Of a DNA stretch of 35,625 nt, positions 5,796-33,466 are shown one piece after another. The stretch lies in NCBI GenBank assembly GCA_031287095.1, contig JAITTG010000004.1, forward strand, positions 1-35,625. Reading direction: 5' to 3'. The translations under genes were made by a program, and so were the position numbers. How positions within the stretch are numbered: the stretch's first letter is position 1; the number at the start of each line of letters is the position of its first letter. The DNA is from Candidatus Parendomicrobium reticulitermitis. Its GTDB lineage: Bacteria; Elusimicrobiota; Endomicrobiia; Endomicrobiales; Endomicrobiaceae. The notes beneath the pieces were generated by a model that saw only the letters and a list, made by a program, of their open reading frames with translations, had not been told where the DNA came from and did no database searches.

Positions 5796-6884
5796 ATGAT
5801 TAAATTTTTAGATTTACACAAAGTCAATGAGCGTTACCGCGATGAGATTGACGATAAAATCAAAGAAGTTCTCGACAGCGGTTGGTATTTGTTGGGACGG
5901 CAAAATGAGTTCTTTTGTAAAAACTTTGCTAATTATTGCGGCGCAAAGTTTGCGCTTGGCGTTGCTAATGGTTTGGATGCGCTCAATTTGATAATCAAGG
6001 CTTATGAGTTTGGCGCAGGAGACGAGATTATTGTCCCCGCGCATACTTATATAGCGACTATTTTGGCTATATCGCAAAATCAATGCATTCCTATTTTGGT
6101 AGAACCCGATATTCTCACCTATAATATCAATCCAGATTTGATTGAACAGAAAATCACTCCAAAAACAAAAGCGATTATGCTTGTCCATCTCTATGGAACG
6201 GCAGTCCCAATGGACAATATTTTAACTTTGGCTAAAAAATACAATTTGAAAGTAATAGAAGATTCGGCTCAAGCGCATGGGGCTGTATATAAAGGCAAAA
6301 AAACAGGCAATTTGGGCGATATTGCGGCTTTTTCTTTTTATCCCGGAAAAAATTTAGGCGCTCTTGGCGACGGTGGGGCTATTACGACAAATGATGAAGA
6401 ACTTTATTTAAAAATAAAAGCCATAGCAAATTACGGTTCTCTCAAAAAATATGAGCATAGATATAAAGGCGTTAATTCCCGCCTTGACGAAATTCAAGCG
6501 GCTGTTTTAGATGTGAAGTTAAAGTATTTGGACAAAGACAATGAAAGAAGACGGCAAATTGCAAAGTATTACTGCGAAAATATCAAAAATCCCAATATAA
6601 TTTTACCGCAAGTTTATGATGAGGCGGCAAGCGTTTGGCATGTTTTTGTAATCAGAACTCAAAACAGAACTCAACTGCAAAACTATTTGTCGGACAATGC
6701 AATAGAAACAAATATACATTACCCAACTCCTATACATAAACAATCAGCCTACAAAGAATGGGAAAGTTTAAGTCTGCCTATCACAGAACAAATTTGCAAA
6801 GAAGTCTTATCTTTACCAATAAGCCCGGCGATGAGCGACGCGGAAGTTGAAAAAGTTGTTGAAATAATGAATGTTTATAAGTGA
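5796..6884 (+). CDS. DegT family sugar aminotransferase, FdtB/QdtB-like (3-amino-sugar type)
   Basis: PLP-dependent transaminase for a dTDP-keto-deoxysugar. Starts [19 protein letters not shown] and carries [21 protein letters not shown], the pyridine-binding [10 protein letters not shown], and the PLP lysine Lys185 in [15 protein letters not shown]. That last segment is characteristic of the FdtB/QdtB/DesV branch, which makes dTDP-3-amino-3,6-dideoxyhexoses from 3-keto sugars. Its length (362 residues) is standard. ATG 5796 follows ACAGGAC. The ketoisomerase (FdtA/QdtA) expected to feed it is not in the window, so the substrate assignment is by subfamily resemblance only. It differs from the aminotransferase at 579-1718, so two different amino sugars are likely. 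Confidence 0.88.
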
Positions 6885-30118: not shown

Positions 30119-30147
30119 TTGAAAAAAAAGTCATAAACTTATATAGT
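30119..30147 (+). promoter_or_regulatory. Promoter of the NifS-like / desulfoferrodoxin / rubrerythrin unit
   Basis: TTGAAA (30119-30124) and TATAGT (30142-30147) are separated by 17 bases, an excellent sigma-70-type pair 25 bases before the start codon and just upstream of the ribosome site GAGAGGA (30161-30167). I see no clear inverted repeat of a PerR/Fur type next to it. Confidence 0.65.
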
Positions 30148-30171
30148 GGCATCTGTAAAAGAGAGGAAATT

Positions 30172-31416
30172 ATGAATAGAATTTATCTTGATAATCAATC
30201 AAATACAAAGATGGACGAAAGGGTTTTTGAGTTTATGAAACCGTTTTTTTTAGAAAATTACGGCAATCCTCAAAGCGCGTATGCTTTCGGCTCTATATCA
30301 AAAGACGCGGTTGAAGAAGCGCGCCTTTGCGCAGCAAACCTTATCAATGCAAAACCCGCAGAAATCATCTTTACTTCTTGCGCGACAGAATCAAATAATC
30401 TTGCTTTAAAAGGCATAAGCGCCGCTCTAAAAGTTCAAGGACGCCATATTGTGATTTCTGCAATAGAGCATTTGTCTGTAACTAATGCGGCAAAAAGACT
30501 TGAAAAAGACGGGTGGAGCGTGAGTATTGTCGGCGTTGATAAATTCGGAAATATCAAACAAGATGAATTAAAAAACGCTTTAAGAGACGACACGATTTTG
30601 GTATCAATACAATATGCAAACCCTGAGATTGGGACTATTCAAAATATAAAATCCCTTGTTGAGATTGTCAAGAATAAAAACCCTAAAACAATTTTTCATA
30701 CTGACGCTGTGTCCGCTTGCGCAAATATTCCTATAGATGTTGTGGATTTAGATATTGACGCTCTTTCTTTTTCTTCATCTGTGATATATGGACCAAAAGG
30801 AGCGGCGGCTTTGTATTTAAAACAAGGAACAAAAATTATCCCGCTCTTTGACGGCGGAACGCAAGAAAATTCAAAACGCTCAGGGTCAGAAAATGTCCCC
30901 GCTATAGCGGGTTTTGGTTATGCTTGTAAATTGGCAAAAGAAGAGATGGCAAAAAATGCCGCAGATATGACGCTTTTACGAAACAAACTTATATCGCATC
31001 TTCCAAAAAACATTGACAATATATATTTAAACGGCGCAACAGAAAACCGTCTGCCTCAAAATATCAATTTCTCAATTGAATTTGTAGAAGGCGAAGCGCT
31101 GTTTTTATTATGCGACGCAAAAGGCATTATAGCGGCAAGCGGCTCCGCATGCGCGTCAAAAAATCTCAAATTATCTCCTGTTTTGACGGCTCTAAATGTT
31201 GACGCCGCTTTGGGGCAAGGCTCTATAATTTTCACTTTATCAAAATATAATACGGCGCAAGATATAGATTTTGTTTTGCAGGAGTTCCCAAATATAGTAA
31301 AAAGACTTAGAGATATGTCGCCGTTATATTCGTATTTCCTAAAAACAGGAAAAAGAAAAGAGGCTGGACCGGGAACTGATTATGACGACCATCATCATGA
31401 TGAAGAAGAGGAATAA
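30172..31416 (+). CDS. NifS/IscS-like protein lacking the PLP lysine, with His/acidic tail
   Basis: Fold-type I aminotransferase homolog closest to cysteine desulfurases, which take sulfur from cysteine for Fe-S clusters. Kept residues: His100 (AIEHLSV), Asp178 (HTDAV), the catalytic persulfide Cys327 in SGSACASK, and general motifs such as CATESNNLALKG and YGPKG. Lost residues: the His-Lys of SSHKIYGPKG is Ser203-Val204, so no Schiff-base lysine exists; the Gln after HTDAV is Ser181; the substrate-binding Arg of the IRFSLG motif is Ile353; and the GG-x-QE-RG-RAGT segment reads GGTQENSKRSGS. The C-terminus ends DYDDHHHDEEEE, suited to metal binding. ATG 30172 follows GAGAGGA. Length is 414 residues. 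Likely not a normal desulfurase; a sulfur or iron scaffold, or regulator, beside the two oxidative-stress genes is possible. Confidence 0.85.
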   Translation: MNRIYLDNQSNTKMDERVFEFMKPFFLENYGNPQSAYAFGSISKDAVEEARLCAANLINAKPAEIIFTSCATESNNLALKGISAALKVQGRHIVISAIEHLSVTNAAKRLEKDGWSVSIVGVDKFGNIKQDELKNALRDDTILVSIQYANPEIGTIQNIKSLVEIVKNKNPKTIFHTDAVSACANIPIDVVDLDIDALSFSSSVIYGPKGAAALYLKQGTKIIPLFDGGTQENSKRSGSENVPAIAGFGYACKLAKEEMAKNAADMTLLRNKLISHLPKNIDNIYLNGATENRLPQNINFSIEFVEGEALFLLCDAKGIIAASGSACASKNLKLSPVLTALNVDAALGQGSIIFTLSKYNTAQDIDFVLQEFPNIVKRLRDMSPLYSYFLKTGKRKEAGPGTDYDDHHHDEEEE

Positions 31417-31459: not shown

Positions 31460-31897
31460 ATGAAAGGATTCGTGTGTAAGTGCTGCGGTTTTGTCGCATT
31501 GGACGGGGACATCAAAAAATGTCCTATCTGTATGCAAGAAAATGTTTTTGAAGAGAAAGAGGATGCTTATAAATTGCCTGATTTTAAGACGGAAAACGGC
31601 GAGAGTGAAAAGAAACATATACCTCAAATAGGCATTGAAACGGCTTGCAAAACTATGGGAGGAGCGAAAGTTATCCATGTGAAAGTTGGAGAAATTACTC
31701 ATCCTATGCTGCCTGAGCATCATATCGGAGAGATTACATTTTATTTAGACAAAAAATTTGTCTCAAATGTAATGCTTAACGAAAATATCAATCCTGTCGC
31801 AACAATTCACTTAAAAGAGGGAACAAGCGGCAAAGTTCAAGCGATAGAAACCTGCAATTTGCACGGTAAGTGGTTTAATGAAGTAGAAGTTAAGTAA
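31460..31897 (+). CDS. dfx: Desulfoferrodoxin (two-centre superoxide reductase)
   Basis: Reduces superoxide to hydrogen peroxide in the cytoplasm of anaerobes without producing oxygen. The N-terminal desulforedoxin-like centre has Cys6/Cys9 and Cys21/Cys24. The catalytic Fe(His4Cys) centre ligands fit His53 (KKHIP), His81 and His87 (HPMLPEHHIGEI), and Cys132 with His135 (CNLHGKW); all are present. The active-site Glu-Lys before the first His is shifted (EKKH in place of EKH). Length is 145 residues. A strong AAAGGAGG lies before ATG 31460. It is 43 bases after the NifS-like gene, in the same orientation, so it is probably one transcript, with rubrerythrin next to deal with the peroxide formed. 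Confidence 0.93.
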   Translation: MKGFVCKCCGFVALDGDIKKCPICMQENVFEEKEDAYKLPDFKTENGESEKKHIPQIGIETACKTMGGAKVIHVKVGEITHPMLPEHHIGEITFYLDKKFVSNVMLNENINPVATIHLKEGTSGKVQAIETCNLHGKWFNEVEVK

Positions 31898-32091: not shown

Positions 32092-32670
32092 ATGGCAAAA
32101 TCAGTGAAAGGAACACAGACGGAAAAAAATCTTCTCATGGCATTCGCTGGAGAATCGCAAGCAAGGAATAGATACACTTACTTTGCTTCAAAAGCAAAAA
32201 AAGAAGGCTTTGAACAAATATCGGGCTTTTTTACAGAAACAGCGGCTAATGAAAAAGAGCATGCTGAAAGATTCTTCAAATTTTTAGAAGGCGGAGAACT
32301 ATCAATCACCGCGTCTTTTCCCGCAGGAATTATCAACACAACAGTTGAAAATTTAAGAGCGGCAGCCGCAGGCGAAAAAGAGGAATGGTCGGACGCTTAT
32401 CCTAAATTTGCAAAAATAGCGAAAGACGAAGGCTTTCCAGAAATTGGAACTACATTTGAAATGGTAGCGGTCGCAGAAAAACATCATGAAGCGAGATACT
32501 TACAACTTCTTGCCAATATTGAAAATGATGAAGTTTTCAAGAAAAAGTCGGTAGTCCGCTGGAGATGCCGCAATTGCGGATATGTATATGAAGGCAAAGA
32601 AGCTTTAGATATATGCCCCGCCTGCCAACATTCGCAAAGTTATATGGAATTGTTAAACGACAATTTCTAA
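32092..32670 (+). CDS. rbr: Rubrerythrin
   Basis: Non-haem di-iron peroxidase of anaerobes that reduces hydrogen peroxide to water. The ferritin-like domain carries the metal ligands Glu21 (AGESQA), Glu54 and His57 (NEKEHAE), a central Glu in GEKEEW, and the second ExxH in [12 protein letters not shown]-terminal rubredoxin domain follows ([11 protein letters not shown] and [11 protein letters not shown]), giving the electron entry site. Length is 192 residues, standard. ATG 32092 is chosen because AAGGAGG stands 5 bases upstream; the open frame continues back through repeat DNA to 32002 but has no site there. With desulfoferrodoxin it forms a complete superoxide-to-water pathway. Confidence 0.96.
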
Positions 32671-32819: not shown

Positions 32820-32830
32820 TGGGAGGAAAT

Positions 32831-33466
32831 ATGAATTTTAACGATTTTAAGAACGAATTTCGCAATATCCCAATTATCAATAGTTCAGATATTGTCCGCA
32901 AATACAAAGGGCAAACCGCTTACAATCAACTAAATACTTGGACTAAAAAAGGATTGTTGATTCAGTTAAAGCGGGGATTGTATATTCTCAATAAAGATGA
33001 TAGAAAGATTGCTGTTGGCAATTATTTTATAGCTAATCAATTATATCAGCCTTCCTATATTAGTATGGAAAGCGCATTGAGTTTGTATGAACTTATTCCA
33101 GACACAACGACAACAATTACAAGTATTTCCACAAAAAAGACAATGACTATTGATAATTCGTTCGCTTCCTTTACATATCAGCATATCAAATCAAAAGCAT
33201 ACAGAGGTTTTAAACTTGAAATAGATAATAATAATCTTAACTATTTTATCGCAGAACCCGAAAAAGCGATTTTGGATTTTTTATATTTCAATCTATCGGA
33301 TATTGATAGGCAAGACGCAGACATTTTTGAAAAGTCTTATCGTTTTCAAAATTTAGATATTTTAAATACAAAGAAAATTCTCCAATACGCAGAATTCTTT
33401 GATAATCCCAAATTAAAAGATACAGCAAAAGCGCTGTGCGTTATTGTAAGGAAGCGCAAAGTATGA
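32831..33466 (+). CDS. AbiEi-family antitoxin / transcriptional autorepressor, orphan
   Basis: Fits the type IV antitoxin AbiEi: an N-terminal winged-helix (SSDIVRKYKGQTAYNQLNTW, LIQLKRGLYIL) and a C-terminal domain with QPSYISMESALSLYELIP, TITSISTKKT, SFTYQHIK and FIAEPEKAILDFLY, the family's hallmark segments. In intact systems it represses the operon and counters the AbiEii nucleotidyltransferase toxin. ATG 32831 follows GGGAGG; an ATG at 32819 precedes the site and is rejected. Length is 211 residues. The last codons (CGC AAA GTA TGA) already belong to the dispersed repeat copy 2, so the natural C-terminus may have been replaced. Only a scrap of the toxin gene remains downstream. Confidence 0.82.
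   Translation: MNFNDFKNEFRNIPIINSSDIVRKYKGQTAYNQLNTWTKKGLLIQLKRGLYILNKDDRKIAVGNYFIANQLYQPSYISMESALSLYELIPDTTTTITSISTKKTMTIDNSFASFTYQHIKSKAYRGFKLEIDNNNLNYFIAEPEKAILDFLYFNLSDIDRQDADIFEKSYRFQNLDILNTKKILQYAEFFDNPKLKDTAKALCVIVRKRKV

What the first reader, a model, noticed from the sequence alone, without database searches (positions are those of the whole stretch)
30172..31416. NifS-like protein without the PLP lysine but with the persulfide cysteine
The codons for Ser203-Val204 replace the universal His-Lys of the SSHKxYGPKG motif. Gln after HTDAV is Ser181, and the cysteine-binding Arg is Ile353. Yet His100, Asp178 and the catalytic-loop Cys327 (GSACAS) are kept, and the frame is intact over its whole length. 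A normal desulfurase reaction is impossible without the lysine, so the protein may have become a sulfur or iron carrier, an Fe-S scaffold, or a sensor. From memory, an archaeal IscS (Archaeoglobus) lacks the same lysine, so this is rare but not without precedent. The co-directional desulfoferrodoxin and rubrerythrin suggest a function under oxidative stress.
Basis: partly seen in the sequence, partly recalled or inferred. Interest (0 to 1): 0.85.

Follow-up and report, generated by a model that had tools for sequence, protein, structure and literature searches.

The report
Lysine-less NifS partner of IscU
A gene that looks like a sulfur-mobilising enzyme has lost the residue the enzyme needs, yet it is intact, conserved across a bacterial class and beyond, and usually encoded beside the cell's only detected general iron-sulfur scaffold, so it probably helps hold iron-sulfur clusters during assembly instead of extracting sulfur from cysteine.

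Summary
ORF 30172-31416 is an intact 414-aa NifS-like protein in which the PLP lysine (V204), its histidine (S203), the PLP glutamine (S181), the substrate asparagine (P151) and the substrate arginine (I353) are all replaced. His100, Asp178 and the persulfide Cys327 are kept. It is neither an error nor a pseudogene: lysine-less orthologues occur in nearly all class-level relatives checked, including closed genomes, under strong purifying selection (dN/dS 0.04-0.09 where finite). Each such genome with good coverage also has an intact NifS. The lysine-less form, not the intact one, is gene-paired with IscU (29/35 against 3/28), and SUF is missing from 38 of 41 genomes. Similar lysine-less proteins form a broad clade in anaerobic bacteria, often beside TusA (19/32 against 1/49) and DsrE. 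Archaeoglobus IscS, known to ligate a [2Fe-2S] cluster with IscU, shares the same losses but falls elsewhere in the tree; a single origin is not rejected. Best explanation: a non-catalytic IscU partner whose Cys327 carries sulfane sulfur or ligates the nascent cluster, with sulfur from sulfide, a TusA/DsrE relay or the intact NifS. It is a new variant of a known kind. The dfx/rbr linkage is real but looks secondary.

The parts
30119..30147 (+). promoter-like site TTGAAA-17-TATAGT upstream of NifS*
   Evidence: consensus match only, 10 of 12
30160..30169 (+). Shine-Dalgarno-like AGAGAGGAAA, 2 nt before the ATG at 30172
   Evidence: sequence
30172..31416 (+). NifS*: lysine-less NifS/IscS-like protein, 414 aa
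30469..30471 (+). His100 (E. coli H104, PLP stacking), kept in all lysine-less proteins
30622..30624 (+). Pro151 in place of the substrate Asn (E. coli N155)
30703..30705 (+). Asp178 (E. coli D180), kept
30712..30714 (+). Ser181 in place of PLP Gln (E. coli Q183)
30778..30783 (+). Ser203-Val204 in place of His205-Lys206
31150..31152 (+). Cys327, persulfide cysteine (E. coli C328), kept
   Evidence: invariant in class; (comparison rows were required to have Cys here)
31159..31170 (+). Lys330-Asn-Leu-Lys333: basic residues in the Cys loop where lysine-bearing enzymes have Gly/Ala and Glu/Asp
31228..31230 (+). Ile353 in place of the substrate-carboxylate Arg (E. coli R354)
31342..31413 (+). C-terminal tail KTGKRKEAGPGTDYDDHHHDEEEE; motif AGPG[T/S]D[Y/F] plus His/acid-rich end, shared by the phylum's NifS* and absent from intact paralogues
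   Evidence: low-confidence, probably disordered in the model
31460..31897 (+). desulfoferrodoxin (superoxide reductase)
   Evidence: Pfam PF01880
32002..32670 (+). rubrerythrin; likely true start ATG near 32092
   Evidence: Pfam PF02915 and PF21349
32698..32743 (.). 20-bp palindromic terminator-like stem after rbr, closing the NifS*-dfx-rbr unit

Best explanation
NifS* is a non-catalytic (PLP-independent or at most PLP-vestigial) member of the IscS/NifS fold that works as the dedicated partner of IscU. It docks IscU as IscS does and puts its mobile-loop Cys327 into the IscU assembly site, where the thiolate or persulfide becomes a ligand or sulfur donor for the nascent [2Fe-2S] cluster held by the conserved Cys/Asp residues of IscU. 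It cannot release sulfur from cysteine by the usual reaction; sulfur comes from cellular sulfide, from sulfane-sulfur carriers (TusA/DsrE where present) or from the intact NifS encoded elsewhere. Shown by sequence: the loss of five catalytic residues, retention of the Cys, long-term conservation, the gene pairing with IscU, and absence of detected SUF. Inferred: physical docking, cluster ligation and the sulfur source.
For: Five catalytic positions invariant in 43 intact enzymes are changed in the window, while the Asp180 and His104 equivalents are invariant in 52 lysine-less proteins, as is the Cys, which was required for inclusion. dN/dS is 0.04-0.09 where finite. IscU lies within 4.5 kb on the same strand in 29/35 NifS* loci against 3/28 intact loci of the class. 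PF01592 (IscU) is in 40/41 genomes, SUF core in only 3/41. The neighbouring IscUs keep Y3, C37, D39, C63, H105, C106 (29/29 class, 19/19 other) and carry Asn at position 108 (29/29 and 16/19, against 7/45 beside intact enzymes). The model's best structural match is A. fulgidus IscS (4R5F; 4EB5/4EB7 are its IscS-IscU complex), 41-43% identity over the alignment. A. fulgidus IscS has the same losses (SSNDIYG, HIDATA, GTLLLTL; [quoted passage not shown] TusA lies near lysine-less proteins in other phyla in 19/32 loci against 1/49.
Against: In the window genome IscU is on another contig (C44) and TusA was not found, so the pairing there is inferred from relatives. One relative without detectable NifS* (G027) keeps the Fur-IscU-FprA-Dfx-Rbr cluster, so NifS* can be dispensed with. 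No binding or activity data exist. Twelve of 32 lysine-less loci in other phyla show no IscU nearby on the stretch held.
Confidence: 0.62

Rival explanations
1. NifS* is a regulatory or structural subunit of a mixed dimer with the intact NifS (pseudoenzyme-enzyme pair). The active chain makes the persulfide and NifS* supplies the IscU docking surface or receives the persulfide.
For: Nearly every NifS* genome with good coverage also has an intact NifS. The residue equivalent to T243, which from general knowledge contacts PLP across the dimer interface, is kept as Thr or Ser in nearly all lysine-less proteins. In G009, G018 and G004 the two genes are adjacent.
Against: In most genomes the two genes are far apart. 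The two proteins are only about 42% identical. The intact gene can instead be explained as the general sulfur source (MnmA linkage 10/28 in class).
Confidence: 0.17
2. NifS* is part of an oxygen-stress or iron-storage response (repair of damaged clusters, or metal binding through its His-rich tail) more than of housekeeping Fe-S assembly.
For: Fur-family gene 12/35, FprA 18/35, Dfx 23/35 and Rbr 19/35 near NifS* in the class, none near the intact paralogue. The same detox genes adjoin NifS* in a Clostridia locus, L121. The tail is His/acid-rich.
Against: In most other phyla the neighbours are IscU, DsrE and TusA without oxygen-defence genes, and in other families of the same phylum the cassette is NifS*-IscU-zinc ribbon-DsrE-TusA. 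IscU would then be a stress protein in genomes with no other general scaffold found.
Confidence: 0.13
3. NifS* has kept some PLP or PMP chemistry with a different substrate and catalytic base.
For: Asp180, His104, Thr/Ser76 and Thr243 equivalents are conserved.
Against: The lysine site is variable (V, Q, S, M, R, N), the Gln and His that hold PLP are gone, and the substrate Arg is mostly aliphatic; a new active site would be expected to be invariant.
Confidence: 0.06
4. Decaying pseudogene or sequencing error.
For: None beyond the residue losses themselves.
Against: Intact frames, losses shared across 35 class loci and closed genomes, and dN/dS of 0.04-0.09.
Confidence: 0.01

Closest known systems
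Archaeoglobus fulgidus IscS2 (PDB 4EB5, 4EB7, 4HVK, 4R5F)
   Same: Lacks the PLP lysine, the PLP Gln and the substrate Arg; keeps the loop Cys; works with IscU, where its cysteine ligates a [2Fe-2S] cluster (PMC7585200); closest solved fold to the model.
   Different: Lysine replaced by Asp in the archaeal type, by V/Q/S/M here; keeps the substrate Asn that is lost here; no AGPGTD tail; lacks the Lys that the bacterial clade has at position 333 of the Cys loop; falls with archaeal lysine-less proteins (100/96), apart from the bacterial lysine-less clade (93/87), although one common clade is not rejected (p-AU 0.30).
Methanosarcina acetivorans IscS1
   Same: Reported to lack the catalytic lysine and proposed to act like A. 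fulgidus IscS (PMC7585200).
   Different: Archaeal, not characterised biochemically (inclusion bodies in E. coli); its sequence was not compared here.
IscS and NifS cysteine desulfurases (E. coli IscS, T. maritima NifS)
   Same: Same fold, same loop Cys, IscU partner.
   Different: Five catalytic residues changed; below the NifS and IscS equivalog cut-offs of NCBIfam (443.4 against 530.75 and 355.8 against 643.2 bits).
MIS, the minimal ISC system
   Same: A two-component set of an IscS-like and an IscU-like protein without carriers.
   Different: MIS is described as having a cysteine desulfurase (PMC12192291); here the IscU-paired protein is not expected to be one. The paper defining MIS was not held, so whether it includes these proteins is unknown.

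Membership tests
PLP-dependent cysteine desulfurase (NifS/IscS) | Schiff-base lysine after His in S[S/G/A]HK.YGPKG | tested here: not met
   Ser203-Val204; present in 43/43 lysine-bearing comparison rows
PLP-dependent cysteine desulfurase (NifS/IscS) | substrate Arg, PLP Gln, substrate Asn | tested here: not met
   Ile353, Ser181, Pro151
PLP-dependent cysteine desulfurase (NifS/IscS) | persulfide Cys in a mobile GSAC loop | tested here: met
   Cys327; loop of low confidence in the model
PLP-dependent cysteine desulfurase (NifS/IscS) | NCBIfam equivalog score | tested here: not met
   below all listed equivalog cut-offs
Aminotransferase class V fold | Pfam PF00266 above gathering score | tested here: met
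   222.8 bits, cut-off 21.5; Foldseek TM about 0.84-0.88 to the best IscS-type structures
A. fulgidus-type lysine-less IscS (IscU partner) | loss of Lys, Gln and Arg with Cys kept | tested here: met
A. fulgidus-type lysine-less IscS (IscU partner) | encoded with IscU | tested here: met
   29/35 class loci; in the window's own genome the IscU is on another contig
A. fulgidus-type lysine-less IscS (IscU partner) | common descent with A. fulgidus IscS as one lysine-less clade | tested here: inconclusive
   separate in the best tree, one clade not rejected, p-AU 0.303
A. fulgidus-type lysine-less IscS (IscU partner) | Cys ligates a [2Fe-2S] cluster on IscU; no desulfurase activity | not testable with these tools
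   needs purified proteins
MIS minimal ISC system | cysteine desulfurase plus IscU-like scaffold, no carriers | tested here: inconclusive
   scaffold pairing met, desulfurase residues not met; defining paper not held

The most novel reading that the evidence does not exclude
A large, old clade of anaerobic bacteria makes Fe-S clusters on IscU without a co-encoded cysteine desulfurase: a dead NifS acts as persulfide carrier and cluster ligand and is charged by a TusA/DsrE sulfane-sulfur relay or by sulfide, a cysteine-independent branch of the ISC pathway.
Probability: 0.33. Interest if true: 0.82.

Novelty: new variant of a known kind. Interest (0 to 1): 0.62.

Why it matters
In the papers read here, lysine-less IscS appears only as an archaeal oddity. 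This work finds it in many bacterial phyla and, in one class, as the partner encoded with the only general Fe-S scaffold detected. That makes an open question testable: how anaerobes supply sulfur to Fe-S clusters, and whether IscU systems can run without cysteine desulfurase. A cultured strict anaerobe, Endomicrobium proavitum, appears to carry the gene. Many genes now named 'cysteine desulfurase' would be misannotated.

Tried and rejected
Pseudogene or sequencing error: rejected. Lysine-less proteins as one clade with A. fulgidus IscS: not supported by the best tree but not excluded; in the quick tree the held-together tree scored better, in the careful tree worse. Nitrogen-fixation role: not tested. 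TusA as sulfur donor in the window's own genome: no TusA found there, so that relay cannot be general for this family. A first neighbour count with a greedy gene caller missed overlapping IscU and TusA genes and was replaced by a six-frame count, corrected for one missorted locus. The paper defining MIS was not available, and searches for papers on lysine-less bacterial IscS found none.

Full report
WHAT IS THERE. The frame 30172-31416 (+) encodes 414 residues without interruption. Compared column by column with E. coli IscS and 42 other lysine-bearing homologues, the five catalytic positions N155, Q183, H205, K206 and R354, each invariant in those 43 enzymes, are Pro151, Ser181, Ser203, Val204 and Ile353 here; T76, H104, D180, S203, T243 and C328 are kept (T243 as Ser). 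A promoter-like site, a Shine-Dalgarno-like sequence and a strong palindrome after rbr fit a NifS*-dfx-rbr unit, but these are consensus matches only.

NOT A PSEUDOGENE. Of 41 genomes searched (own plus 40 relatives), nearly all with good coverage hold an orthologue (50-70% identity, plus an 84% fragment in the same genus) and a second, intact NifS at about 42%. All orthologues with a readable site lack the lysine; the replacements vary (V, Q, S, M), as expected of a site no longer catalytic, whereas Cys327, Asp178 and His100 are invariant. dN/dS for same-genus or near pairs is 0.04-0.09 in six pairs (one more pair has saturated dS), similar to 0.055-0.072 for the intact paralogue (dS is high, so the ratios are rough). 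The gene is kept in reduced genomes of about 1.1-1.3 Mb. G010 is a single contig of 1,588,979 bases, exactly the published chromosome size of Endomicrobium proavitum (PMC4505116); its identity is inferred from that length. It places the window in the family of Endomicrobium, phylum Elusimicrobiota.

THE PARTNER. In the class, a same-strand IscU lies within 4.5 kb of 29/35 lysine-less genes but of only 3/28 intact ones. IscU (PF01592) is in 40/41 genomes, the SUF core (PF01458) in 3/41 although it is in all 14 control genomes. So the only general scaffold detected is genetically tied to the lysine-less protein. In the window's own genome IscU is at C44:9024-9398, followed by a small zinc-ribbon-like protein (PF12773, just below cut-off). 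That IscU keeps all ligand residues (Tyr3, Cys37, Asp39, Cys63, His105, Cys106). IscUs beside lysine-less proteins have Asn at position 108 in 29/29 class and 16/19 other cases, against 7/45 beside intact enzymes, and mostly Asn or Gln in place of Val in the LPPVK motif. This is association, partly by shared descent.

BREADTH. A scan of public genomes, seeded with this family and therefore biased, returned 32 lysine-less proteins with the loop Cys in Chloroflexota, Myxococcota, Thermodesulfobacteriota, Nitrospirota, Acidobacteriota, Aminicenantota, Omnitrophota, Zixibacteria, Deferribacterota, Bacillota, WOR-3 and archaea. In a tree built without the trait columns, the bacterial lysine-less proteins form one group (93/87; 100/99 when the lysine-bearing 9WEP is added), the archaeal ones with A. 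fulgidus IscS another (100/96), and the class's intact NifS a third set. One single lysine-less clade is not rejected (p-AU 0.303), so two or more losses are favoured but not shown. The bacterial group also has basic residues in the Cys loop (Lys at position 333 in 44/48 where lysine-bearing enzymes mostly have Glu or Asp, Lys/Arg at 330 in 40/48) and Ser102 in 48/48.

NEIGHBOURS ELSEWHERE. Near lysine-less genes in other phyla TusA occurs in 19/32 loci (1/49 near intact ones, and that one is on the same contig as a lysine-less gene) and DsrE in 8/32 (1/49). Intact genes instead adjoin Rrf2/IscR-type regulators (26/49 against 4/32) and MnmA (11/49 against 1/32). The recurrent order is NifS*-IscU-zinc ribbon-DsrE-TusA, seen in Dehalococcoidia and Myxococcota and, without the zinc ribbon, in Smithella and Clostridia; TusA and IscU also adjoin the archaeal type. 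The same cassette occurs in other families of the window's phylum, while one family there lacks NifS* and has a NifU-intact NifS pair, and others have intact NifS-IscU-MnmA. Fisher p-values ignore relatedness of the loci.

OXYGEN DEFENCE. In the class, FprA, Dfx, Rbr and a Fur-family regulator adjoin NifS* (18, 23, 19 and 12 of 35) and never the intact NifS; a Clostridia locus has FprA-Dfx-Rbr-TrxB-NifS*-IscU-DsrE-TusA. So oxygen defence and Fe-S assembly are co-encoded, but the Fe-S part is the constant one. G027 has the cluster without NifS*.

THE TAIL. All class orthologues with a complete C-terminus but one (L068) end in AGPG[T/S/A][D/N/K][Y/F] followed by a His/acid-rich stretch (35 with the motif, window included; 27 with three or more His), as do the phylum-level orthologues read in full; none of 28 intact class paralogues and none of the lysine-less proteins elsewhere do. 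It has low confidence in the model and is probably disordered. Metal binding is a guess from composition.

HOW IT WORKS, BEST GUESS. The model (mean pLDDT 81, 17-sequence alignment) matches A. fulgidus IscS best, 4R5F first and the IscS-IscU complex 4EB5/4EB7 among the top eight. According to PMC7585200 that protein has no desulfurase activity and its cysteine ligates the [2Fe-2S] cluster in IscU; M. acetivorans IscS1 is proposed to do the same. The shared set of losses makes the same role the most economical reading. The sulfur source is open: sulfide (the genome has a CysK-like gene near IscU, recognised by eye only), TusA/DsrE where present (TusA not found in the window's genome), or the intact NifS.

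VERDICT. Observation confirmed; interpretation right in direction, wrong on rarity, and incomplete on partner. A new bacterial variant of the lysine-less IscS known from Archaea.

Noticed in passing
L193:9403-9585 (G000:C44), also L102, L103, L207-L210: A Cys-rich protein of about 60-75 aa, weakly like a double zinc ribbon (PF12773), follows IscU in the window's class and in Dehalococcoidia and Myxococcota; role unknown.
   Followed up: partly
G000 and 40 relatives: SUF core proteins (PF01458) are absent from 38 of 41 genomes of this class, although all 14 control genomes have them.
   Followed up: yes
G027:C23:28000-45000 (L196): A relative without NifS* keeps Fur-IscU-FprA-Dfx-...-Rbr in one cluster: a natural absence that could show what NifS* adds.
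   Followed up: partly
L121 (Clostridia MAG): FprA-Dfx-Rbr-TrxB-NifS*-IscU-DsrE-TusA in one stretch: the oxygen-defence and sulfur-relay neighbours together in another phylum.
   Followed up: partly
PDB 9WEP to 9WFY: A series of variants of one cysteine desulfurase in which active-site residues, in some entries the lysine and the Arg, are replaced; 9WEP is the lysine-bearing protein nearest the bacterial lysine-less clade in the tree.
   Followed up: no
window 32828-33466 (+): Reading by eye suggests an AbiEi-like antitoxin without a toxin partner beside it; Pfam gave no match.
   Followed up: partly
window 5796-6884 (+): A second fold-type I PLP-type protein, DegT-like by eye, with its SF.PGK lysine motif present.
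   Followed up: no
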